Below are positions 4,037 through 32,990 of a stretch of 33,198 nt of DNA, one piece after another. This stretch comes from a bacterium HR19 (GTDB taxonomy: Bacteria; Calescibacteriota; Calescibacteriia; Calescibacteriales; Calescibacteriaceae): the NCBI GenBank assembly GCA_002898315.1, contig BEHV01000016.1:1-33198 (forward strand), given 5' to 3'. Both the position numbers and the translations under genes were made by a program. Under the pieces are notes generated by a model. That model was not told the DNA's origin. It did no database searches and was given only the letters and a program-made list of their open reading frames with translations. How positions within the stretch are numbered: the first letter of the stretch is position 1; the number at the start of each line of letters is the position of its first letter.

Positions 4037-5537
4037 AACAAAAAATCAATTCAGAAAAATCAAGATCACAAAAAATAGAATCAAAAAAACTTTGAAAACC
4101 ATATTACTATTGCTCATTATAAAAGTTCTCGCTTTCACCTCCTACTGCTCGGAGAAAAGAAAAAGCATTCGGGAGAAAAATCAAAATTCCACAATTCATG
4201 AACACTATCATGAACACGAAAAAGAACACAACCATGAACACAATAGCAAAACTCATGAAAAAATAGAAGAGCAAAAACAGGAAGAAGAAAAAGAGAAGAA
4301 AAAAATCTACTACTGCCCCATGCATCCGCACTACACATCTGACAAACCGGGAAAATGCCCAATATGCGGTATGGACCTTATAGAAAAGAAAGAACCCGAA
4401 AAAAAAAATGAAGAGAAAAAAAACTCACCAGAAAAATCAATCTTCATCTCACCGCAAAAATTACAGCTCATAGGTGTGAGCTTCACCAAAGTTCTGAAAG
4501 AAGAAATAGAAAAAGAAATAAGAACTTACGGATACATAAGCTACGATGAAAGAAAAATAGTATCAATATCACCAAGGTTCTCTGGATGGATAGAAAAACT
4601 TTATGCGAACTTTGAAGGAAAAGAAGTCAGCAAAGGAGAACCCCTCGCTGAAATCTACTCACCAGAAATCCTCTCCGCATTTCAAGATTATCTTATACTA
4701 AAAAAACAACACGAAAAAGCAGGAAACGAAAAAGTAAAAGAAACTTTATCTGAACTCTTAGAATCAGCGAAGAAAAAAATTCTGCTTTATGACCTCCCCC
4801 AAGCTGAAATAGAAAAATTACTCAAAGAACCATCACCATACATAATCATTCGCTCACCGTCAAACGGAGTAGTGATAGAAAAAAAAGTATTTGAAGGGAG
4901 CTATTTTCAAGCCGGTTCAGAAATGTTCAAAATAGCAGACATATCTCACCTCTGGTTCATAGGCGAAATATATGAAAAAGACCTATCTAACATCAGAGAA
5001 AAGGAAAAAATAAATATCTTCATAGAATCAGTAGGGAAAACTTATTCAGGAAAAATAGAATTCATATATCCTTATGTAGAAAAAGAGATAAGAACAATCA
5101 AAATAAGAGTTTCTCTTCGGAACGATGACGGAAAATTAAAGCCATACCTATACTCATATGCTTATATCAAAATCCCACTTGGGAAACGACTTACTATACC
5201 TGAAAGCTCTGTGATAATTTCGGGAGAAAAAACATATGTGTTCCTGAAAGGGGAAAAAGAAGGAGAACTCATACCAAAAGAGATAAAGTTAAGAGAAAAA
5301 TTAAAAGGAAAGTATATAGTTGAGAGCGGTCTAAATGAAGGAGACGAAGTTGTATCTTCGGCAGTATTCCTCGTTGATTCCGAAAGCAAACTAAAATATG
5401 CTCTTGAATCGTTTGGAGGAATGCATGAGCATGGCAAAACACACGAAAACTCAGAAAACCAAAAAGACGCAAAAAATAAAACTCAAAACAAAAACCTGAA
5501 CGAACAGGAAGAAGGAGGACACACTCATGGTAGATAA
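4026..5537 (+). CDS. Periplasmic adaptor of heavy-metal RND efflux, with His-rich segments and heavy-metal-binding domain (CusB-like)
   Basis: 503 residues from GTG 4026. Order of parts: basic N-terminus; membrane segment about 23-38; His-rich stretch about 58-77; charged linker; heavy-metal-binding domain at about 95-119 (YYCPMHP...PGKCPICGMDL, with C97, H100, C111, C114); then the membrane-fusion-protein body with barrel-sandwich, helical hairpin (about 215-275) and beta-barrel (IIRSPSNGVVIEK, FKIADISHLWFIGEIYEKD). The C-terminal ~40 residues are again His-rich. It would bridge the pump and the outer-membrane channel and pass metal to the pump, as CusB does for Cu(I)/Ag(I). The end overlaps the pump gene by 11 nt. 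Metal identity is inferred; the CPMHP domain is common in Cu/Ag adaptors. Confidence 0.9.
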   Translation: MQDKTKNQFRKIKITKNRIKKTLKTILLLLIIKVLAFTSYCSEKRKSIREKNQNSTIHEHYHEHEKEHNHEHNSKTHEKIEEQKQEEEKEKKKIYYCPMHPHYTSDKPGKCPICGMDLIEKKEPEKKNEEKKNSPEKSIFISPQKLQLIGVSFTKVLKEEIEKEIRTYGYISYDERKIVSISPRFSGWIEKLYANFEGKEVSKGEPLAEIYSPEILSAFQDYLILKKQHEKAGNEKVKETLSELLESAKKKILLYDLPQAEIEKLLKEPSPYIIIRSPSNGVVIEKKVFEGSYFQAGSEMFKIADISHLWFIGEIYEKDLSNIREKEKINIFIESVGKTYSGKIEFIYPYVEKEIRTIKIRVSLRNDDGKLKPYLYSYAYIKIPLGKRLTIPESSVIISGEKTYVFLKGEKEGELIPKEIKLREKLKGKYIVESGLNEGDEVVSSAVFLVDSESKLKYALESFGGMHEHGKTHENSENQKDAKNKTQNKNLNEQEEGGHTHGR

Positions 5538-8500
5538 AATCATTGATTGGTGCCAGAAAAACAAATTCTTCGTCATATATATATACATATTTTTGGTTCT
5601 CTGGTCGGTATGGACTTTAAAGAGATTACCAATAGATGCTATTCCTGACTTATCAGATGTTCAGGTCATAATATATGTCTCATACGAAGGAAAATCACCA
5701 ACCACAGTAGAACTACAAGCAACATACCCTATTGTATCATCTCTTCTTTCAGCTCCAAAAGTAAAAACAGTAAGAGGATACTCGTTTTTCGGATTTGCTC
5801 TCATATTTGTCATATTTGAGGATGGAGTAGATATATACTGGGCAAGGTCAAGAATATTGGAATACCTTCAAGGAATAGAACTACCAGAAGGAGTCCAGAT
5901 TATGCTCGGTCCAGACGCAACAGGAGTAGGATGGGGATTCCAGTACGCTCTCTCTGATAAAAAAGGTAAGTGCGATCTCGCGTGTCTCCGTTCTCTGAAC
6001 GACTGGTACATAAGATATGTTCTGAGGTCTGTTCCCGGAGTTGCTGAAGTTGAATCGGTAGGAGGGTTTGTAAAACAGTATCAGGTTCTTCTTGACCCGT
6101 TGAAACTCAAAGCTTACGACATCCCCGTAGAAGAAATAATATCTGCAATACGAAAATCTAACCTTGAAGTCGGAGGGAGATTGATTGAAATATCGGGAGC
6201 AGAGTTTTTCGTACGCGGTTCAGGTTTCATAAAATCAAAAGAAGATATAGAGAAAATACAAATAAGAACGAAAGATGGAACTCCAATATTCCTCAAAGAC
6301 ATTGCAGACATAACTCTTGGCGGAGATATAAGAAGGGGAGCTGCTGAACTCAACGGAGAAGGGGAAACAGTGGGCGGAGTGGTCGTGGTAAGATACGGAG
6401 AGAACCTTTTCAAAGTTGTCAGAGATGTGAAAAAGAAATTGAGAGAAATAAAAAGTTTTCTCCCCGATGGAGTTGAGATCGTGACAACATATGATAGGTC
6501 AGATCTCATTCAAAGGTCAATAGACAATCTCAAAAGAAAAATAACTGAAGAGTGTGTGGTTGTTCTCGCTGTATCACTTATTTTTCTTTTTAACTTTTCT
6601 GCTGGAATGGTAGTAGTTGTAGCTTTGCCTGTATCTGTCCTTCTCGCCCTTATGTCAATGTATTACCTTAAAATAACGTCAAACATAATGTCTCTTGCTG
6701 GAATAGCATTGGCAATAGGAACTATGGTAGATGCGATGATAATAATGATAGAAAACTCGCTCAAAAAACTTGAAAACGAAGATGAAAAGAAGATAAGAGA
6801 AAAAAGAGAAAGAGAAAAAATTATATCAGAAGGCATGAAAGAGGTCGCGAGGTCGCTTCTCTTTTCTATGCTTGTTATCACAGTATCGTTCTTGCCCATT
6901 TTTTTCCTTTCGGCTCAGGAGGGAAGATTGTTCAAACCTCTTGCTTGGACAAAAACACTTTCTATGTTCTTTGCAATCCTTGTTTCAATGACTTTGACAC
7001 CGTCGTTAGCAACACTCCTCATAAGAAAAAAGCCAATCCACGAAGAAAAAAATCCCATATTCAAAATCACAACGGGAATCTATCATCATCTTTTAGGTCT
7101 TGTGATAAGGTGGCGAAATATTGTGCTACCGCTGGTCGCAGTATCAATCATATTTTCGTTTTTACTTTTCAGAAAACTCGGAAGGGAATTTATGCCTCAG
7201 CTTAACGAAGGAACAATATTATATATGCCAACAACACTTCCCGGAATATCTATTACAGAAGCGACAAAACTACTGCAAATTCAAGACAGAATCTTGAAAT
7301 CTTTCCCCGAGGTTCTGACCGTCTTTGGTAAAGTGGGAAGAGCAGAAACCTCAACAGACCCTGCCCCTCTTTCAATGATAGAAACAACAATAATACTTAA
7401 ACCAGAAAAAGATTGGCCCTGCCGGGTAGAGAAAAAATATAGTTTCGCTCCCGAGTTGATAAGACCAATACTGAAAAAAATCTTCGGAGAATGCAGAAGA
7501 TGGAGCTGGGAAGAACTCGTAGACGCAATGGATAAGGAGATGCAGTTTCCCGGAGTCGCCAACGCCTGGACGATGCCCATAAAAAACAGAATAGATATGA
7601 TAACAACAGGAATAAAAACTCCTCTTGGAATAAAAATTTTCGGTCCCGAACTCAAAGTTATAGAGAAAATAGGCGTAGATATAGAAAGAGAGCTTATGAA
7701 ACTTCCTGAAACCCGCTCTGTCTATGCCGAAAGAGTCATAGATGGCTACTATGCAGATATAACAGTGAAAAAAGAAATAGCAGAAAGATATGGATTTAAA
7801 ATTGGTGATGTCTATGAAATCGTTGAAACAGCAATAGGTGGGAAAAACATCAGTTTCTCAGTTGAAGGCAGAGAGAGATATCCTATTCAGGTCAGATTCG
7901 CAAGAGATTTCAGAGAAGATATAGAATCTCTCAAAAATTTGCTCATTCCAACTCCTTCTGGATACTTTATACCTCTTGGAGAAATAGCTGAAATTACTCT
8001 CTCCCGCGGTCCATCAACAATAAAGACAGAGAAAGGTTATCCCACAGGTTGGGTCTATATTGACATATCAGGAATTGACATAGGAAGGTATGTTGATAAG
8101 GCGAAAAAAGTTATTGCAGAGAGTGTGCAAATTCCCCCGGGTTATTGGATAGAATGGTCCGGTCAGTATGAATACATGGAAAGAGTAAAGGAAACTTTGA
8201 AGTTCGTAATCCCATTGACTCTGGCTATAATTTTTTCGCTTATTTATCTTAACACGAAGTCGCTCGTAAAGACGCTGATAGTCATTCTCTCTGTACCCTT
8301 CTCCATCGTTGGAGCCATATTGATTTTATACATCCTTGGTTATAACATAAGCACGGCAGTATGGGTTGGTCTGATAGCGCTCGCAGGACTTGATGCAGAA
8401 ACAGGAGTTGTGATGCTTTTATTCCTTGATTTAGCATACGAAGATGCAAAGAGAAAAGGAATTCTGAAAACCGACGATGACCTCAAAGAAGTGATATTTT

Positions 8501-8724
8501 ATGGAGCGGTCAAAAGGTTGCGACCAAAACTCATGACTGTTCTGACAGCAATAATAGGACTTCTCCCAATAATGATAGGAGAAGAACCCGGCTCAGATGT
8601 CGGAAAAAGAATAGTTGCTCCAATGATAGGGGGACTTATAACAAGCTTTATACTTGAGCTCCTCATATACCCAACGATATTTTATACATGGAAAAAAAGA
8701 GAGATAAAGAAACCGCAGGAATGA
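5527..8724 (+). CDS. CusA/CzcA-type heavy-metal RND efflux pump
   Basis: 1065 residues, normal for heavy-metal RND pumps. It starts at ATG 5527 after GAAGGAGG. The N-terminal helix is followed by the family signature IDAIPDLSDVQV and PEGVQIMLGPDATGVGW. TM4 reads AIGTMVDAMIIMIEN, the form seen in Cu/Ag pumps rather than the DFG..DGA form of Zn/Co/Cd pumps; its Asp is the proton-relay residue. The C-terminal half has RIDMITTGIKTP, and ALAGLDAETGVVML in the TM10-12 region. RIDM carries the equivalent of E. coli CusA M672, but the two other copper methionines (M573, M623) are not present (see findings). It pumps metal outward using the proton gradient, together with the two preceding gene products. 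The stop codon overlaps the start of a 25-codon ORF (ATGA). Confidence 0.95.
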   Translation: MVDKIIDWCQKNKFFVIYIYIFLVLWSVWTLKRLPIDAIPDLSDVQVIIYVSYEGKSPTTVELQATYPIVSSLLSAPKVKTVRGYSFFGFALIFVIFEDGVDIYWARSRILEYLQGIELPEGVQIMLGPDATGVGWGFQYALSDKKGKCDLACLRSLNDWYIRYVLRSVPGVAEVESVGGFVKQYQVLLDPLKLKAYDIPVEEIISAIRKSNLEVGGRLIEISGAEFFVRGSGFIKSKEDIEKIQIRTKDGTPIFLKDIADITLGGDIRRGAAELNGEGETVGGVVVVRYGENLFKVVRDVKKKLREIKSFLPDGVEIVTTYDRSDLIQRSIDNLKRKITEECVVVLAVSLIFLFNFSAGMVVVVALPVSVLLALMSMYYLKITSNIMSLAGIALAIGTMVDAMIIMIENSLKKLENEDEKKIREKREREKIISEGMKEVARSLLFSMLVITVSFLPIFFLSAQEGRLFKPLAWTKTLSMFFAILVSMTLTPSLATLLIRKKPIHEEKNPIFKITTGIYHHLLGLVIRWRNIVLPLVAVSIIFSFLLFRKLGREFMPQLNEGTILYMPTTLPGISITEATKLLQIQDRILKSFPEVLTVFGKVGRAETSTDPAPLSMIETTIILKPEKDWPCRVEKKYSFAPELIRPILKKIFGECRRWSWEELVDAMDKEMQFPGVANAWTMPIKNRIDMITTGIKTPLGIKIFGPELKVIEKIGVDIERELMKLPETRSVYAERVIDGYYADITVKKEIAERYGFKIGDVYEIVETAIGGKNISFSVEGRERYPIQVRFARDFREDIESLKNLLIPTPSGYFIPLGEIAEITLSRGPSTIKTEKGYPTGWVYIDISGIDIGRYVDKAKKVIAESVQIPPGYWIEWSGQYEYMERVKETLKFVIPLTLAIIFSLIYLNTKSLVKTLIVILSVPFSIVGAILILYILGYNISTAVWVGLIALAGLDAETGVVMLLFLDLAYEDAKRKGILKTDDDLKEVIFYGAVKRLRPKLMTVLTAIIGLLPIMIGEEPGSDVGKRIVAPMIGGLITSFILELLIYPTIFYTWKKREIKKPQE

Positions 8725-14196: not shown

Positions 14197-15912
14197 TCAA
14201 TGCTCATGACCACTACTAGCGGGCTGTTTCAATTTAACAAGCTTCCCCTGAGGCAAGTAATCTATATCTTTTCCGTTTCTGGCGTATTCATACGGACCTC
14301 TCTCAACCACTGGTGCAAACGAACCCCAGTTGAGATGTGGTGGAGGAGATGGGGCAAGCCACTCCAAAGTTGTTGATTTCCAAGGATTCGGCGACTTCTC
14401 CTCCGCCCCAGCAAAAATACTGTAAAAGAAAACAAAAAGAAATACAACCTGTGTTGTAAGAAGAAGAACAGCAGATACAGTCATAAGCTCATGAACCCAC
14501 TGATATTTTTGTAGATATCCGAATTCAAGCGCAGAGTAGTATCTCCTTGGATGACCTGCTAAACCCAAGAAAAATCCAGGGAAAGCAAAACCGTTGTAGA
14601 AGATAAAGGTAAGCCACGCGTGAATTTTTCCAAATGTCTCATTTATCTTTCTTCCGAACATCTTCGGAAACCAGTGACATATACCCGCTATTGTGCTGAG
14701 GACCGCAATTGTAAAGACAGTGTAGTGAAAGTGGGTAACAACAAAGTAAGTATCGTGAAAATATATATCACTACCAACTGCACCAAGCGGAAGTCCTGAT
14801 AGTCCTCCTATTATGAACATCAAAAAAGCAAATATAGCAAAGAGCATAGCGGGAGTGAAACGAATTGAACCACCTGCAAATGTAAGCCCCATAACAACAA
14901 GAGTCATTGAAAACGGAATGGAAATAAGTATTGTGGTCACAGAAAAAGCGGTGGCAGATAGTGGATTTATTCCGGCAACAAACTGGTGATGAGCCCAAAC
15001 AAGAAAGCTCAAAATTCCTGCAACTATCGCCGCATATACAACCAACTTATAACTGAAAACAGGTCTTCTACTATAAGTCGTTATCACCTCAAACAAAATC
15101 CCAAGAGCCGGGAACAAAATAACATAAACTTCGGGATGACCAAAAAACCAAAAAAGATGTTGCCACAAAACAGGGTCCCCTACTTTTCCGGCTTCAACCC
15201 TGAAAAAGTGAGTTCCAAGAATAATATCAAGAAGAAGCATTACAGCACCTGCAATAAGGGGGGTTACCGAGAACAAAAATAGCAAAGAAGCAACAACCTC
15301 CATCCACACAAAAATAGGAAGTCGCATAAGCGTAAGTCCCTTCGCTCTCATCGTCAAAGCGGTTGTGATAAAATTCACTCCACCCATAAGCATAGATGCA
15401 AACTCAAGAGCAAGAGCTAAAAGAAAAAGAACCGTTCCCAAATTTGCTCCAAGATACCTTTCAGGGTCAGCGCTCAGCGGAGGATAAACCGTCCACCCAC
15501 CAGAAAAAGCCCCACCGGGAACGAAAAAAGAAATAATTAAAATCACAGAAGAGACGAAAAACACCCAGTAAGAGAACATATTGAGGGTTGGAAAAGCCAC
15601 ATCTCTTGCACCTATCATAAGCGGAATGAGAATATTACCAAATCCTCCGAGCAAAATGGGCATAGCAACCCAGAAAAACATTATAGCTCCATGATATGTC
15701 ACGAAAGCATAGTACTGCTCATTCGTCAAAAATCCAGGGTGAGCGAGATTTATTCTGAACAAAATCGCCAGCGTTCCCCCCAAAATAGCCATAGCAATTC
15801 CCGTAATAAGATACTGCTTACCTATTGTCTTGTGATCTTTTGAAAACAGGTATTTTCTCAAAAAAGATTCCTCGTGATGGATTGCGCCAGCAGATGCTAC
15901 TGCCTCGCTCAT
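14197..15912 (-). CDS. ctaD: Cytochrome c oxidase subunit I (A-type haem-copper oxidase), K-channel residues absent
   Basis: 571 residues and 12 or more membrane helices. Haem a ligand H74 (YHGAIMFF), the CuB/active-site segment FGHPEVY (H259-Y263 cross-link pair, E261), CuB histidines H308/H309 (WAHHQF), and haem ligands in FHDTYFVVTHFHY are all present. D-channel residues N93, D104 and N111 and gating E261 are kept, so by these motifs it is an A1-type oxidase. At the K-channel positions it has T337 for the Lys, F334 for the Thr, and F274 for the Ser (aligned to Paracoccus K354/T351/S291). The protein reduces O2 to water and pumps protons in the inner membrane. Its start overlaps the subunit II stop by ATGA. 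Confidence 0.96.
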   Translation of the reverse strand: MSEAVASAGAIHHEESFLRKYLFSKDHKTIGKQYLITGIAMAILGGTLAILFRINLAHPGFLTNEQYYAFVTYHGAIMFFWVAMPILLGGFGNILIPLMIGARDVAFPTLNMFSYWVFFVSSVILIISFFVPGGAFSGGWTVYPPLSADPERYLGANLGTVLFLLALALEFASMLMGGVNFITTALTMRAKGLTLMRLPIFVWMEVVASLLFLFSVTPLIAGAVMLLLDIILGTHFFRVEAGKVGDPVLWQHLFWFFGHPEVYVILFPALGILFEVITTYSRRPVFSYKLVVYAAIVAGILSFLVWAHHQFVAGINPLSATAFSVTTILISIPFSMTLVVMGLTFAGGSIRFTPAMLFAIFAFLMFIIGGLSGLPLGAVGSDIYFHDTYFVVTHFHYTVFTIAVLSTIAGICHWFPKMFGRKINETFGKIHAWLTFIFYNGFAFPGFFLGLAGHPRRYYSALEFGYLQKYQWVHELMTVSAVLLLTTQVVFLFVFFYSIFAGAEEKSPNPWKSTTLEWLAPSPPPHLNWGSFAPVVERGPYEYARNGKDIDYLPQGKLVKLKQPASSGHEH

Positions 15913-25929: not shown

Positions 25930-25960
25930 AGCAGAAAAAATTATAATAACTTTCCCCGAG

Positions 25961-25992
25961 AAATAAAATTTTTCGGAAATAAAATTTTTCGG
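25961..25992. repeat. Perfect 16-bp tandem duplication upstream of htpX
   Basis: The 16-base unit aaataaaatttttcgg occurs twice in a row (25961-25976, 25977-25992). Because 16 is not a multiple of three, the two copies would be read in different frames if translated, which argues that the stretch is leader rather than coding sequence. Confidence 0.85.
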
Positions 25993-26009
25993 TAAATATA
26001 AAAGCATCT

Positions 26010-27737
26010 TCATCTACTCCCAAGAAGCATAAGAAGGTCTCTGTAGAACGGAAAATTAGCGCACATTTCCCTAACCTCGTTTCTGACATCTGATACAACC
26101 TTCTCATCAAAATTTGCTGATATCACTCTATCTATCATACGAGCTATAAATCTCATCTCTTCTTCTTTCATACCACGCGTTGTGAGAGCAGATGTTCCTA
26201 ATCTTATTCCAGATGGATTCATCGGGGGTCTCTTATCAAAAGGTATGACGTTCTTGTTAAGAATTATTCCCGCTTTATATAGCTCTCTTTCAACATCTCC
26301 ACCGCTGACTCCCTTTGGAGATACATCTATAAGAACGATATGAGAGTCAGTCCCCCCTGTTATGACATTGTATCCGAGTTTCTGGAATTCGTCTGCAAGA
26401 GCTTTTGCGTTTTTCACGACCTGCTCCGCATAAAGCTTGAAATCGGGTTCCATCACCTCTTTGAAGCAGACCGCTTTCGCAGCTATAACATGCATAAACG
26501 GTCCCCCTTGTGTTCCCGGAAAAACAGCAGAGTCAATCTTTTTTGCGTAATCAGATTTCGTAAGAATAACTGCACCACGAGGACCCCTCAGGGTCTTATG
26601 TGTTGTAAATGTCACAAAATCTGCGTATGGAACAGGAGAAGGGAAAACGCCCGCAGCAACCAAACCAGCAGGATGAGCTATATCTGCAAGAAGATATGCT
26701 GAAACCTCCTTTGCTATATCAGCGAAAGCTTTGAAATCTATCGCTCTTGGGTAAGAAGACGCACCCGCAATTATTATCTTTGGTCTCTCTCTCCTCGCTA
26801 TATCTCTTATCTTATCAAGATCCAAAAGATGAGTCCTTTCATCAACAGTATAAAAAACAGGCTGATATATCTTTCCAGAAAAATTGACCTTTGCACCGTG
26901 AGATAAATGCCCGCCAGAAGATAATTCCAAACTCATGATTTTATCGCCCGGCTCGAGGAATCCCAGGAAAACCGCTTGATTCGCCTGCGTTCCAGAGTGC
27001 GGTTGAACATTTGCGTGCTCCGCTGAAAAAATCTTCTTCACCCTCTCACGAGCTATCTCCTCAACAATATCTACAAATTCACAACCTCCGTAATAGCGCT
27101 TTGATGGATAACCCTCGGCGTATTTGTTATTCATAGGATTAAAAAGCGAAAGAAGAACCCTCAAACTCGTCAGGTTCTCAGAAGCTATCAGATTCAGTGT
27201 ATTTTCTTGCTTTTCTATCTCATTACGTATAGCGTAAAAAACATCTGGGTCAAACTTTCTTATCATTCCAAAAATGTGAGAGAGAGAAAAGATAAGTTCT
27301 TCTTCTATCTCTTTTATCTTCTCTATTCTTCTCAAATGTCTCCCCCCTTCAAATGAGCTTTCCATAAAGACCTTCAGAAGTTCTATGGCATAATCTGGTG
27401 AGATAATTCTTCCGGGAAAGACGATTATATTTGCGTCATTGTGAGCTTTTGCCATGCGAGCAGAAAACTCGTTGAACACAAGCGCAGCCCTAACTCCCGG
27501 AAACTTATTAGCTGTAATGCTCATTCCTATACCCGTCCCGCATATCAAAATACCTAAATCTGCCCTATGTGAAGAAACTTCCTCCGCAACAGAACGAGCA
27601 AAATCCGGATAATCTACCTTGCCATCACCAGAATCTACTCCTCTATCTTCAAACTCTATACCCTTACTTTTTAAAAACTCTTTTATTTTCTCTTTCAGGA
27701 AAAAACCAGCGTGGTCAGAACCTATAGCAACTTTCAT
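26010..27737 (-). CDS. Fused ribose-5-phosphate isomerase B - serine hydroxymethyltransferase
   Basis: 575 residues from ATG 27737; the in-frame TTG at 27764 is rejected because MKVAIGSDHAG is the exact RpiB start. Residues 1 to about 140 are RpiB, with H9, C66 (ICGTGIGMS), H99 (AHNDAN), R133 and R137 at the positions of the E. coli enzyme. A short helical linker (about 138-158) leads into full-length GlyA (about 417 residues): IASENLTS, NKYAEGYPSKRYYGG, HSGTQAN, and PLP lysine K381 in TTHKTLRGPRG. Both halves appear catalytically complete, joining pentose-phosphate interconversion with serine/glycine one-carbon metabolism. rpiB and glyA are neighbours in many genomes. Here no stop or frameshift separates them. 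Confidence 0.95.
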   Translation of the reverse strand: MKVAIGSDHAGFFLKEKIKEFLKSKGIEFEDRGVDSGDGKVDYPDFARSVAEEVSSHRADLGILICGTGIGMSITANKFPGVRAALVFNEFSARMAKAHNDANIIVFPGRIISPDYAIELLKVFMESSFEGGRHLRRIEKIKEIEEELIFSLSHIFGMIRKFDPDVFYAIRNEIEKQENTLNLIASENLTSLRVLLSLFNPMNNKYAEGYPSKRYYGGCEFVDIVEEIARERVKKIFSAEHANVQPHSGTQANQAVFLGFLEPGDKIMSLELSSGGHLSHGAKVNFSGKIYQPVFYTVDERTHLLDLDKIRDIARRERPKIIIAGASSYPRAIDFKAFADIAKEVSAYLLADIAHPAGLVAAGVFPSPVPYADFVTFTTHKTLRGPRGAVILTKSDYAKKIDSAVFPGTQGGPFMHVIAAKAVCFKEVMEPDFKLYAEQVVKNAKALADEFQKLGYNVITGGTDSHIVLIDVSPKGVSGGDVERELYKAGIILNKNVIPFDKRPPMNPSGIRLGTSALTTRGMKEEEMRFIARMIDRVISANFDEKVVSDVRNEVREMCANFPFYRDLLMLLGSR

Positions 27738-27797: not shown

Positions 27798-28400
27798 TCA
27801 TTTTCTCCTCGCAAAATGAATTGGTTCCTCACCAACATATACCCTGAAAGTATAAGGATTCAAGTTCACCCAGATTTTTTTCTCAAGCTCTATCTCAACA
27901 AGCGGAATCCTTGACGACTGTAAAAGTATCTCAACCTCTTTTCCAAATGTCTCCTCGGCATCAACAAAAAGTGAAGTTATATCAGAAGATAACTTTATTT
28001 CTTCTTGTTTCTTCCACTCACACGGAACCTGAGGAGTTATAACAGGAAGAAAAGGAAGATTTGATTTGCCAAAAAAACCTTTTAACTGCTCGCTAATTTT
28101 TTCATATCTTTGCTTCTCTTCTTGGGTCATATTAATAGGGACACAATCTAAAACCTCTATTTTCTTCTCCCTCTTCTTTATGAGCAACTTCAAACTCTTT
28201 TTATCTCTTGAGACCTTATCTATGATTTTTGAGAAGAATGCAACAAGCTTTCTCGCCTCAGATTTTACAGCTTCCTCCTTAAAAACTGGTATCCTCGGAA
28301 AAGCAAGAGCTAAAAACAAAGCTATAATGGCTAATACAACAGAAATCTCAATCAGAGTGAAAGAGCTTCTTTTCAAGTTTCTGTCTGATTGATTTTTCAT
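27798..28400 (-). CDS. Type IV-pilin-like pseudopilin (GspH-like)
   Basis: 200 residues. A 13-residue basic leader ends at Ser, and the mature N-terminus begins FTLIE (E5 present) followed by a hydrophobic helix, the N-methylation/class III signal of pseudopilins. The position after a gspG-type gene and the size fit minor pseudopilin GspH, but the C-terminal domain shows no clear signature, so another minor pseudopilin is possible. The residue before the cleavage site is Ser, not the near-universal Gly. ATG 28400 overlaps the gspG stop by 4 nt (ATGA). It is followed 60 nt later by the rpiB-glyA fusion. Confidence 0.75.
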   Translation of the reverse strand: MKNQSDRNLKRSSFTLIEISVVLAIIALFLALAFPRIPVFKEEAVKSEARKLVAFFSKIIDKVSRDKKSLKLLIKKREKKIEVLDCVPINMTQEEKQRYEKISEQLKGFFGKSNLPFLPVITPQVPCEWKKQEEIKLSSDITSLFVDAEETFGKEVEILLQSSRIPLVEIELEKKIWVNLNPYTFRVYVGEEPIHFARRK

Positions 28401-28768
28401 TCCGCTGAAATATCGTCCTGGGTTCCAACAACTTTATCTGGTCCAGGAGATTTAAGAGTAAAGGTTGAGCCATCTGAAATATAGTAATAGTCAGACCCCC
28501 AGGGGTCTTTCGGTATCTGTTTCCCTTTTATATATCCACCTCTTGCAAGTGCCGATAGCCCCTCATCAGTGGTGGGGTATCTGCCGTTTTCAATCTTATA
28601 AAGTTCAAGTGCCTGCTCTATCATTGTGAGCTGAGCCCGAGCGGTTCTTTCTCTCGCTCTATCAAAATACCTTATTACATTTATACCAACAAGACCTGCG
28701 AGCAGACCTATAATAAGCACAACGACCATTATCTCTATCAAAGTGAATGATTGAAAAAACCTACCCAT
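28397..28768 (-). CDS. gspG: Type II secretion major pseudopilin GspG
   Basis: 123 residues after a very short 7-residue leader (MGRFFQS), then FTLIEIMVVVLIIGLLAGLV. RARAQ-type helix residues, a NGRYPTTDEGL.AL loop and DPWGSDYYY are the diagnostic core of GspG. The end (SPGPDKV.GT.DDI) matches the calcium-binding loop. It forms the pseudopilus that drives secretion across the outer membrane. No other gsp gene is in the window, so the machine is encoded elsewhere or beyond the gene cluster. As in the next gene, Ser replaces Gly at -1. Confidence 0.92.
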   Translation of the reverse strand: MGRFFQSFTLIEIMVVVLIIGLLAGLVGINVIRYFDRARERTARAQLTMIEQALELYKIENGRYPTTDEGLSALARGGYIKGKQIPKDPWGSDYYYISDGSTFTLKSPGPDKVVGTQDDISAE

Positions 28769-28880: not shown

Positions 28881-31800
28881 CTACTCAACCCTCCTTCTTA
28901 TCGCAATAAAGAGGAATGAAAGAGCAAAGAGTAAAGCTCCAAATCCCGAAAATCCAGCAGAAGCAGAACAACCTAACACTCCAACCTTCTCTGTCACAAA
29001 GAACCTGTGCGAGTATGTTGATATATTCCCTACATCATCTTTCGCTTTGATTTCAAGAACATGCTCACCTTTTGAGAGAGAGTCAATGTCAACATAGCTT
29101 ACATCAGACGCTGGCACCCACTCTCCGAATTCTCCGTTATCTACCCTCCATGCAACGAGCGTTTCTGATTTCTTTGCCTGTGCATCTTTCACATCAACAA
29201 AGAACCTTGCTCTATCACCTCTTACCAGCTCTGGACCCGAGACCCTTATATCTGGACCGAGTGTATCCACTCTGAACACGAAGCGTGCAGGTGTTGGGTC
29301 AATAAGCTTGTTCTCATCTCTTGCTCTGACCTCAAAGGTGTGCCAACCTTCAAGAAGATGTGTGAGAACAACCGAGTTTTCATCCTGCCACAGGTTCCAT
29401 GTTCCGCCATCAAGTCGCCAGGAATACTTGAACCTTGAAGATTGAGGAGAGAACGCAGAAAAGTCAATTCTTGTGTAAAGCGCGTGCGGGTCAGATGTGT
29501 AGGTTATCAGAGTTTCAGGAGGTGTAACCTTGAATCCGTTCCCGTTTCCATCCGCATTTGCAAGATGCACATTAATAGCTGCTGGCGGAGCTGAAAGCCC
29601 TGCAACCCCTCCTATTATATTAACAATATCAACTCCAAACGATTTCAGAAGTTTTATCAATCTTCCTAATCCTGTTCTTCCCTGCCAGTGTATGAATATC
29701 TCAAAGTAATCTCCTATGTTGTCTTTCGGATTACCAGCAAACGGTTGGTCATAGGCAAGAGTAGAGCCAAACTCAGGACCTACCCACGGGAAGTTCAGCG
29801 CAATAGGTATCTGTATAAGAGCTGCGGGGTCAAACGCCAATCTCAACTTAGCTCCTGCAACAGCATTCAGTATAACGGGTAAGATATTGCCAAGTATTTC
29901 AGCCCAATCAGAACCGCTCAGCCCCAAAGCGTTTGTGTTATATGCGATAAAGTATCTTACATCTGGGTCAACATACAGCGTCAGGTCTATCACACGAGCA
30001 AATGTCCCACCGTTCGGGAAGTAGTTACCTCCCTTAGATGGATCTGGCACCGGGTTGCCATAGTAATCTCTGTAGTATGAAGTAAGTGGTTTTGTGAAGT
30101 CAGTAGAATCTAATCCTGGGAACTCCACGGTTCTTGCACAATCAGGAGAAACACAAGGAACTATATCTATATCAACAGAAAGCTGTAGACCTACTGTTAG
30201 ACCGAATATCCTCATCCATGTCTGAGAAGCCATCGGGTCTGTGATATTTCCTGTTGTTATAACATTGAACGATAGGTCAACATAAGGAATATCTATCATG
30301 AGGTCTGCGGTATCAAACCATGTTGTGGGTTGAACAAACATTGTAAAACTGCTACCATAAGTTGCATTTTTAACGAACTCAGCCCAGAAATCAACTCTTG
30401 TTGAACCCTGTGCGTAGACAGAAAGAACAGGTCTGAAAGTTGGACCACCCGTTTTAGCGTATGCGACAATAGAAAGCGGTTTGTTATAAGAAGCTGCTCC
30501 ACCCGTGTTCCTTGATGGGTTTCCTGGGTCTTTGTAGTTCGGTATAATTTCTATTGCCATCTCTTTTCCTGGGTATTTATCTTTGAGCATGGGCATAAAG
30601 AACCCGAACGAATCGGTTTTGAGAAATCCGCCCGCAAACCCGCCGAGCATTGGAGTGTATTTATCTACCCATATGCAGGCAAGTCCATCTCCTATCGCCT
30701 CATAAAGTATCCTTGAAATCAGGTTGTGGTGAATTCCTATTCCAACATAGTAGTTTGTAAGAGAGTATCCGTATCTACCTTCGGCAAGTGTTGGAGATGA
30801 AGGAGCTTGTGGCAAAAGTTCGGTCTTGAAGACAAAGTTCGGAGTTCCACCGTTAACTATTGGACACGAGTTAACATCGCGAACTGTTGATGGACAACCC
30901 GTCTGCGGCTGACATTCTACAATAGGAATTATCGGGCTTGTAGCAGCTGTAAAAGAAGAAGCAAACTGCACACATGTAGATACATAATCCTTAAACACAG
31001 AGTAATCTCTCTTGACAAATGTTATACTTGTCGCAGAAGAGCTCCAGAGAACATACCTTATATCTACTCCAACATTCATAGCAAGCAAGATTCCAGCACT
31101 ATCTGCCCAGAAATCATTCGTGAATCCAAAATCTATAAATATCTTATTTGGTTTCAAGTCATAGTATGTAGTAGGTCCAACATAAACAACTTCCTCCAGA
31201 GGATGATCTATTGGGTTTATGCTATTTATTATGCTCTTTAAATCAAAGACCTGGCCGGGGAACAAGAAATAGGCAATACAGGTATCGTACTGGGTTACAG
31301 TATGGTTTGGAATACAGCTTGTATTGAAGTTATCTACCGCTATCATTCTCAAAACAACGTCAAGCCACAGCAGAGTTTTTGCAAACTTCTGCGATACTCT
31401 GTATTCTGGACAGTACCGAACAGAACCGACCTGGTTCCACGAAGTAGACCAGCACGCCGGTGTAGTAGCACTGCTTGCCATAGGAACAAAGTCATACGCT
31501 ACACCCGCAACAACATCAAGGAATTTGAGGTTTATTCCAAGACCTCTTACCATGTGTTCCCAATCCTTGTAAGATGTCCAATCTCTGAAATTACCTTTTA
31601 TTTGAATACCAACTCGCATGGCTAAAAGTGGCATTCTCACAAATGCTCTTCCGTTTATGTAGTTCGCGATAACTCTTTCCGGCTTATATTGATATTGAGT
31701 TACATTTTTATCAAATTGTGGGTCGCATATATGCTCGTCGTTTACAGCAGCAGCATTCTTGAAACAATAAGAAAGGTCGTTCGGGAATGTGGTAACCCCT

Positions 31801-32909
31801 GCTTTGAACTGACATGAGCCTCCAACCCAGTTGCAATCCACATATCTTGTCTGCGAATCAACAAAAGGAGATACAAAAGTCAAAGCTATTTCAAAATTAC
31901 CTATCTCTATTCCTACGTCAAGTCGGTCATCTGAAGTGTGCTCTGTGAGGTCTCCTTCGCATGTCGCAGTAGCGGGAAAATCTGTTCCTATGTTCCCTTG
32001 AAGTGTAACTCTTATAGAGTTTCTGTTATAGTCAAGAATCAACCTGTTTCCTGTGACTCTATCTATAAAGTAGTAGTTATCCCACCCCTGTGAAGTTGGG
32101 CAAATTCCTGGCATTTCTCTTCCACATTTTCCAAAAGGTGGCCAGCTGAAACCACCTGAATAATATTGGATTGGGTTAGCAAAAGTTCCGACGACCTTAT
32201 TCCTTTCTTGTCCGAAAATCACCGCGTTGACGCATAGTGGTGCACCTTCATCGTTCAGAAGCGGAATTGGGAGACACGTAGAAAAGATTCCCTTTCCATC
32301 GTTCTTACACATATTCTTTCCTGAATCCCAAGTTCCTGTTGGGTTGTATCCTGCCATGTATTCAAAGTAAATTCCGTTGCCGAAGCAATGAGTCAAACCT
32401 TCTCCGTACTGCCAGAGTGATGATGAAGTAGTTATCGCACAAGCCATAGTAGCGTTCCTGAAATAATAGCTATATGTTGGGTCCTTAGGGTAGTTATTTG
32501 TTAGCCACTGCTGAAAATCGAAAAGAGAATCCCATAGATCCCCCACAACTTTGGTATTTGTACATTTATCAAGAAATTGTCTTGCGAGGAGGTCTATGAG
32601 ATTAGCAACAGAAGGGTCGGACTGCAAAATATCTGAAATAAAGTTTGCTATCTCTTGCATTCCGGAATTTGTTATTCTTACCACAACATTGTGTTTTTCA
32701 AGCGCCTCACGAGTTATAAAACCAGGTGAAACCTGCGGAAGCCCTCCCCATCTTATAGGGTCTTTTATTCCAACAGAATACGGGTTGCCTGTATCTTTTG
32801 TTATTGCGTGGTGCATTTCCTGAATTCTTTTTGCCTCTGACTGCCCCACTGTGATAAAAAGTAAAAAGCCGAAGACACCAACTAAACCCCACAAAAGTTT
32901 TTTGCCCAT
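28881..32909 (-). CDS. Large exported Cys-rich surface protein with Ig-like domains and MYXO-CTERM-like anchor
   Basis: 1342 residues from ATG 32909, supported by GAAGGAGGT and a promoter that lies inside the longer frame (open to 32990). A signal peptide (about 1-25, ending SEA) is followed by a ~1090-residue region I do not recognise, with many beta-strand-like alternating patterns and 24 cysteines. Two Ig-like beta-sandwich repeats follow (FKYSWRLDGGTWNLW...HTFEVRARDE and AWRVDNGEFGEW...HVLEIKAKDD), as in deltaproteobacterial surface proteins. The tail is GCSASAG, a hydrophobic helix and RRR, the layout of MYXO-CTERM/GlyGly-CTERM sorting signals. It is probably exported, processed at the C-terminus and surface-attached. 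Function is unknown. It is monocistronic, with its own promoter and terminator, next to type II secretion pseudopilin genes. Confidence 0.85.
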   Translation of the reverse strand: MGKKLLWGLVGVFGFLLFITVGQSEAKRIQEMHHAITKDTGNPYSVGIKDPIRWGGLPQVSPGFITREALEKHNVVVRITNSGMQEIANFISDILQSDPSVANLIDLLARQFLDKCTNTKVVGDLWDSLFDFQQWLTNNYPKDPTYSYYFRNATMACAITTSSSLWQYGEGLTHCFGNGIYFEYMAGYNPTGTWDSGKNMCKNDGKGIFSTCLPIPLLNDEGAPLCVNAVIFGQERNKVVGTFANPIQYYSGGFSWPPFGKCGREMPGICPTSQGWDNYYFIDRVTGNRLILDYNRNSIRVTLQGNIGTDFPATATCEGDLTEHTSDDRLDVGIEIGNFEIALTFVSPFVDSQTRYVDCNWVGGSCQFKAGVTTFPNDLSYCFKNAAAVNDEHICDPQFDKNVTQYQYKPERVIANYINGRAFVRMPLLAMRVGIQIKGNFRDWTSYKDWEHMVRGLGINLKFLDVVAGVAYDFVPMASSATTPACWSTSWNQVGSVRYCPEYRVSQKFAKTLLWLDVVLRMIAVDNFNTSCIPNHTVTQYDTCIAYFLFPGQVFDLKSIINSINPIDHPLEEVVYVGPTTYYDLKPNKIFIDFGFTNDFWADSAGILLAMNVGVDIRYVLWSSSATSITFVKRDYSVFKDYVSTCVQFASSFTAATSPIIPIVECQPQTGCPSTVRDVNSCPIVNGGTPNFVFKTELLPQAPSSPTLAEGRYGYSLTNYYVGIGIHHNLISRILYEAIGDGLACIWVDKYTPMLGGFAGGFLKTDSFGFFMPMLKDKYPGKEMAIEIIPNYKDPGNPSRNTGGAASYNKPLSIVAYAKTGGPTFRPVLSVYAQGSTRVDFWAEFVKNATYGSSFTMFVQPTTWFDTADLMIDIPYVDLSFNVITTGNITDPMASQTWMRIFGLTVGLQLSVDIDIVPCVSPDCARTVEFPGLDSTDFTKPLTSYYRDYYGNPVPDPSKGGNYFPNGGTFARVIDLTLYVDPDVRYFIAYNTNALGLSGSDWAEILGNILPVILNAVAGAKLRLAFDPAALIQIPIALNFPWVGPEFGSTLAYDQPFAGNPKDNIGDYFEIFIHWQGRTGLGRLIKLLKSFGVDIVNIIGGVAGLSAPPAAINVHLANADGNGNGFKVTPPETLITYTSDPHALYTRIDFSAFSPQSSRFKYSWRLDGGTWNLWQDENSVVLTHLLEGWHTFEVRARDENKLIDPTPARFVFRVDTLGPDIRVSGPELVRGDRARFFVDVKDAQAKKSETLVAWRVDNGEFGEWVPASDVSYVDIDSLSKGEHVLEIKAKDDVGNISTYSHRFFVTEKVGVLGCSASAGFSGFGALLFALSFLFIAIRRRVE

Positions 32910-32918
32910 AACTTCAAT

Positions 32919-32927
32919 ACCTCCTTC
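32919..32927 (-). promoter_or_regulatory. Ribosome binding site fixing the start of the large surface protein
   Basis: GAAGGAGGT on the minus strand, 9 nt upstream of ATG 32909. It is placed correctly for a protein starting MGKKLLWG with a clean signal peptide, and not for the upstream in-frame ATGs. Confidence 0.85.
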
Positions 32928-32948
32928 GGGATATTTTTTCATACCAAA

Positions 32949-32977
32949 ATAATAATCACTCTTGTTGAAAAAGTCAA
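32949..32977 (-). promoter_or_regulatory. sigma70-type promoter of the large surface-protein gene
   Basis: TTGACT (32972-32977) and TATTAT (32949-32954) with an optimal 17-bp spacer on the minus strand, five of six matches each. The start would be near 32942, giving a ~33-nt leader that contains the ribosome site. It is the best promoter in the window, suggesting high expression. Confidence 0.8.
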
Positions 32978-32990
32978 GCAAAATGAACAT

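What the first reader, a model, noticed from the sequence alone, without database searches (positions are those of the whole stretch)
26010..27737. Single-chain RpiB-GlyA fusion enzyme
One uninterrupted frame encodes a complete RpiB (H9, C66, H99, R133, R137 all at E. coli positions) and a complete serine hydroxymethyltransferase (PLP lysine K381) joined by a ~20-residue helical linker. The two genes are commonly adjacent, but a fusion is unusual to my knowledge. It would physically couple pentose-phosphate isomerisation with one-carbon supply, both needed for purine synthesis.
Basis: partly seen in the sequence, partly recalled or inferred. Interest (0 to 1): 0.65.

Follow-up and report, generated by a model that had tools for sequence, protein, structure and literature searches.

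The report
Recurrent RpiB–GlyA enzyme gene fusion
One gene in this hot-spring bacterium makes a single protein holding two ordinary metabolic enzymes, and the same joining of these neighbouring genes has happened independently in several bacterial lineages, so it is real and moderately curious but not exotic.

Summary
One uninterrupted minus-strand frame (window 26010-27737, 575 aa) encodes a complete ribose-5-phosphate isomerase B and a complete serine hydroxymethyltransferase (SHMT), joined by about 12 residues. It is not an assembly error: all five held genomes of the phylum (Candidatus Calescibacterium / EM19 group, judged from relatives' record titles) carry it at 70-96% identity. It is the only RpiB and only SHMT detected in them, and the unrelated isomerase RpiA is absent, so both halves are probably active. 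The fusion is uncommon but not unique. In a survey of 386 genomes, 14 genomes in 7 of 259 families carry it. Trees reject a single origin (SHMT p about 1e-6, RpiB p 0.0014). rpiB and glyA sit next to each other in nearly half of 55 other genomes, typically ahead of nrdR or a dCMP deaminase gene, and fusion arises by loss of the intervening stop codon. One lineage still has a ribosome-binding-like site and ATG inside the joined frame; EM19 has lost both. The most likely account is a bifunctional protein with two independent activities, fused by stop loss in a tight operon. Channelling is unlikely because the enzymes share no intermediate; metabolic coupling is untested. I found no description in the held literature.

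The parts
26010..27737 (-). rpiB-glyA fusion gene, 575 aa plus stop
27300..27737 (-). RpiB domain, residues 1-146 (D8, H9, C66, H99, R133, R137)
   Evidence: PF02502 E 2.8e-55; nearest solved relative 1o1x, E 7.5e-47
27264..27299 (-). Linker, residues 147-158; in-frame ATG (M157, 27267-27269) without a Shine-Dalgarno-like site, not conserved in two of four relatives
26028..27263 (-). SHMT domain, residues 159-570 (PLP lysine K381)
   Evidence: PF00464 E 1.9e-153; 1kkj, E 1.3e-143

Best explanation
This is a bifunctional enzyme. Its N-terminal half interconverts ribose 5-phosphate and ribulose 5-phosphate; its C-terminal half transfers a one-carbon unit from serine to tetrahydrofolate. The two active sites work independently on one chain, giving 1:1 production. 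The fusion arose by loss of the rpiB stop codon in a tight rpiB-glyA operon, probably once before the known EM19 lineages diverged, and independently in at least six other lineages. Shown: the continuous frame, conserved catalytic residues, phylum-wide presence, sole-copy status, multiple origins. Inferred: both activities, assembly of both homodimers on one chain, benefit through co-expression or none at all.
For: Both domains complete with active-site residues. All 5 held genomes of the phylum fused at 70-96% identity, with different flanking genes in G001 and G003. One RpiB and one SHMT hit per EM19 genome and no RpiA in any of 13 fusion-bearing genomes, while the RpiA control rings in 8 of 14 reference genomes. 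Single origin rejected by AU test: SHMT p 1.1e-6, RpiB p 0.0014; 7 changes on both trees, at least 3 forced by well-supported branches. In family f21 the fused genus reads AAGGAG AAT GTT TTC ATG where its unfused relative G171 reads AAGGAG AAA TAA GCT ATG. In f43, G046 is fused while G323, 78% identical, keeps a TAA. Other fused genes sit beside fabF, dCMP deaminase and nrdR genes.
Against: No activity or expression data. EM19 genomes are 82-86% complete, so a missed second copy in one genome is possible, though not likely in all five. The AlphaFold model is a monomer from 13 sequences and is weak at parts of the SHMT active site (pLDDT under 50 at 209-217, 273-279, 407-409).
Confidence: 0.85

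Rival explanations
1. The fusion is selected for metabolic coupling: tethering raises flux to purine and thymidylate synthesis by placing ribose-phosphate and one-carbon supply together or letting one domain regulate the other.
For: Repeated independent fusion of the same pair, and no fusion of glyA to the nrdR or dCMP deaminase gene downstream in 22 loci that have one.
Against: The two reactions share no intermediate, so classical channelling cannot apply (established biochemistry). The 22-locus control is biased, since loci were chosen by a fusion query. Linker sequence and length differ between lineages.
Confidence: 0.2
2. The chain is made but also yields free SHMT by internal initiation or is cleaved, so the fusion is only partly used.
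For: In the f21 fused genus an AAGGAG site and ATG remain inside the frame. M157 is present in the window and in L004.
Against: In EM19 there is no Shine-Dalgarno-like site at the junction and no Met at that place in L005 or L007, although other window genes have AAGGAGG sites.
Confidence: 0.1
3. Assembly or sequencing error joined two genes.
For: Draft genomes.
Against: Same continuous frame in five genomes at 70-96% identity with a length-variable linker.
Confidence: 0.01

Closest known systems
Ribose-5-phosphate isomerase B (RpiB; PF02502; Thermotoga maritima 1o1x, E. coli 1nn4)
   Same: Full domain and all checked catalytic residues
   Different: Carries a C-terminal SHMT domain
Serine hydroxymethyltransferase (GlyA; PF00464; B. 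stearothermophilus 1kkj)
   Same: Full domain, PLP lysine, conserved PLP-site motifs
   Different: Carries an N-terminal RpiB domain; S274 replaces the usual His two residues before GGH in several EM19 members
rpiB-glyA operon pair, often followed by dCMP deaminase or nrdR genes
   Same: Same gene order; adjacent in nearly half of 55 non-EM19 genomes (counted by hand)
   Different: No stop codon between the genes; in EM19 the rest of the cluster is not found beside them
   Same: Same domain order, 49-53% identity
   Different: Separate origins, different linkers

Membership tests
RpiB (NF004051 / TIGR01120) | Passes curated model cut-off | tested here: met
   188.7 bits vs 135; 174 vs 138.65
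RpiB (NF004051 / TIGR01120) | Catalytic Cys66, His99 and phosphate-binding residues H9, R133, R137 | tested here: met
   (invariant among 13 fusions)
RpiB (NF004051 / TIGR01120) | Isomerase activity as a dimer | not testable with these tools
   needs purified protein
SHMT (PF00464 / NF000586) | Passes curated model cut-off | tested here: met
   604.6 bits vs 335
SHMT (PF00464 / NF000586) | PLP-binding lysine and surrounding active-site residues | tested here: met
   K381, E208, Y206, H277, D352, H355, R512
SHMT (PF00464 / NF000586) | Hydroxymethyltransferase activity | not testable with these tools
   needs assay
Two-domain fusion protein | Single continuous frame conserved in relatives, without an internal translation start | tested here: met
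   single-chain product not shown experimentally

The most novel reading that the evidence does not exclude
Repeated independent fusion reflects selection for an allosteric or supramolecular link between ribose-phosphate and one-carbon supply, for instance filaments or cages built from two homodimeric enzymes on one chain.
Probability: 0.12. Interest if true: 0.65.

Novelty: new variant of a known kind. Interest (0 to 1): 0.36.

Why it matters
The pair gives a clean natural series for how operon neighbours become one protein: separate genes with a short spacer, a fused frame that still holds the inner ribosome-binding-like site and start codon (f21), and a fully committed fusion fixed in a phylum (EM19). 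The repeated origin makes it possible to ask whether fusion is passive or selected. It also supplies a thermophilic bifunctional enzyme candidate. Neither enzyme function is new.

Tried and rejected
Apparent long-frame fusions in G005 and G037 were rejected: stops lie between the genes. In-frame neighbours with stops (G040, G135, G162, G332 and others) were checked and are separate genes. The 'stops inside' column can mark a stop past the end of the protein: G102 and G368 looked interrupted but are fused. Six literature searches: five on the enzyme and gene pair showed no paper on the fusion among the titles and abstracts listed, and one sought the organism; full texts were not opened. Taxon names of the other fused families could not be had, because genomes there are unnamed and the one named-genome scan returned only EM19 fusions.

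Full report
Observation. The minus strand of window 26010-27737 holds one uninterrupted frame of 575 codons from ATG 27737. Pfam places a full RpiB domain at residues 3-141 and a full SHMT domain from residue 160; both pass NCBIfam's curated cut-offs for RpiB and SHMT. K381 aligns with the PLP lysine of the B. stearothermophilus enzyme. The linker is about 12 residues (147-158). AlphaFold makes helices at 133-149 and 152-162 with low confidence between them.

Not an error. The held genomes of the window's phylum number five, in three genera; all five have the fusion as one open frame at 70-96% identity. Named records matching four of them include Candidatus Calescibacterium nevadense (EM19) and another Candidatus Calescibacterium sp., so the window belongs to that group. 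The linker varies in length and sequence while the frame stays open. Two of the genomes have different neighbouring genes, so the join does not depend on one local arrangement.

Both halves are probably needed. Each EM19 genome gives a single match for the fusion protein; the window's own genome has one PF02502 and one PF00464 hit. The alternative isomerase RpiA (PF06026) is absent from all 13 fusion-bearing genomes searched, while the same search rings in 8 of 14 control genomes. Completeness of 82-86% is a caveat. Absence of a second copy is therefore strong but not absolute.

How common. Among 386 genomes of 259 families, follow-up of the frames shows 14 fused genomes in 7 families: f1 (EM19), f21, f43, f50, f99, f139, f210. 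Family f99 is fused in all seven genomes held, one of them cut at a contig end. In f21 three genomes of one genus show the whole fused frame, while another genus (G171) has a stop and a third (G390) has separate genes. In f43 one of two genomes is fused. This is a lower bound, since weak RpiB halves might be missed.

Origins. On a tree of 60 SHMT domains the fused label needs 7 changes, at least 3 forced by starred branches; holding fused rows as one clade is rejected, p-AU 1.1e-6. The RpiB tree also needs 7 changes and rejects one clade, p-AU 0.0014. These are quick trees with many weak inner branches, so the exact number is uncertain; changes may include losses. The EM19 rows form one supported clade on both trees.

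Mechanism of joining. By my hand count, 26 of 55 non-EM19 genomes have rpiB directly ahead of glyA, three of them fused. In many loci a dCMP deaminase or nrdR gene follows, and fabF precedes in some. In f21 the unfused G171 reads AAG GAG AAA TAA GCT ATG at the junction; the fused genus reads AAG GAG AAT GTT TTC ATG. Thus the stop is gone while a Shine-Dalgarno-like site and the glyA start remain in frame: an early stage. In EM19 no such site is left at the junction, and L005 and L007 have no Met there, though other genes in the window have AAGGAGG sites. EM19 appears committed to the single chain.

What it does. From the established functions of the two families, one half makes or consumes ribose 5-phosphate and the other makes methylene-tetrahydrofolate and glycine. 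Both feed nucleotide synthesis, but no product of one is a substrate of the other, so channelling is not expected. Co-expression at 1:1, or simple passive fixation, is the most economical account. A rough control favours some selection: none of 22 loci with a downstream nrdR or deaminase gene has it fused to glyA, but these loci were picked with a fusion query, so the comparison is biased.

Novelty. Each domain is an ordinary member of a known family. I found no account of the fusion in the held papers, judged from listed titles and abstracts; databases such as UniProt and InterPro could not be consulted, and automatic annotation may already list this architecture. I rate it a new variant of a known kind, of moderate interest.

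Noticed in passing
L009 / L096 / L097 junction (family f21): Fused frame still contains AAGGAG and the glyA ATG in frame: an apparent early stage of gene fusion that could yield both fused and free SHMT.
   Followed up: partly
L058 (G368): The fused frame runs open for about 200 codons ahead of RpiB; probably an unused open stretch in G+C-rich DNA, not examined.
   Followed up: no
window 28881-32990 (-) with 27798-28768 (-): A 1369-aa protein with a probable signal peptide and C-terminal membrane stretch, encoded beside T2SG-like and other pseudopilin genes; conserved beside the fusion in G002 and G004.
   Followed up: partly
window 5527-8724 (+) and 14197-15912 (-): An AcrB-type RND transporter and a COX1-type terminal oxidase subunit, suggesting aerobic respiration.
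   Followed up: no
window about 25950-26000 (-): Tandem copies of CCGAAAAATTTTATTT between the fusion's stop and the M48 peptidase (htpX-like) gene.
   Followed up: no
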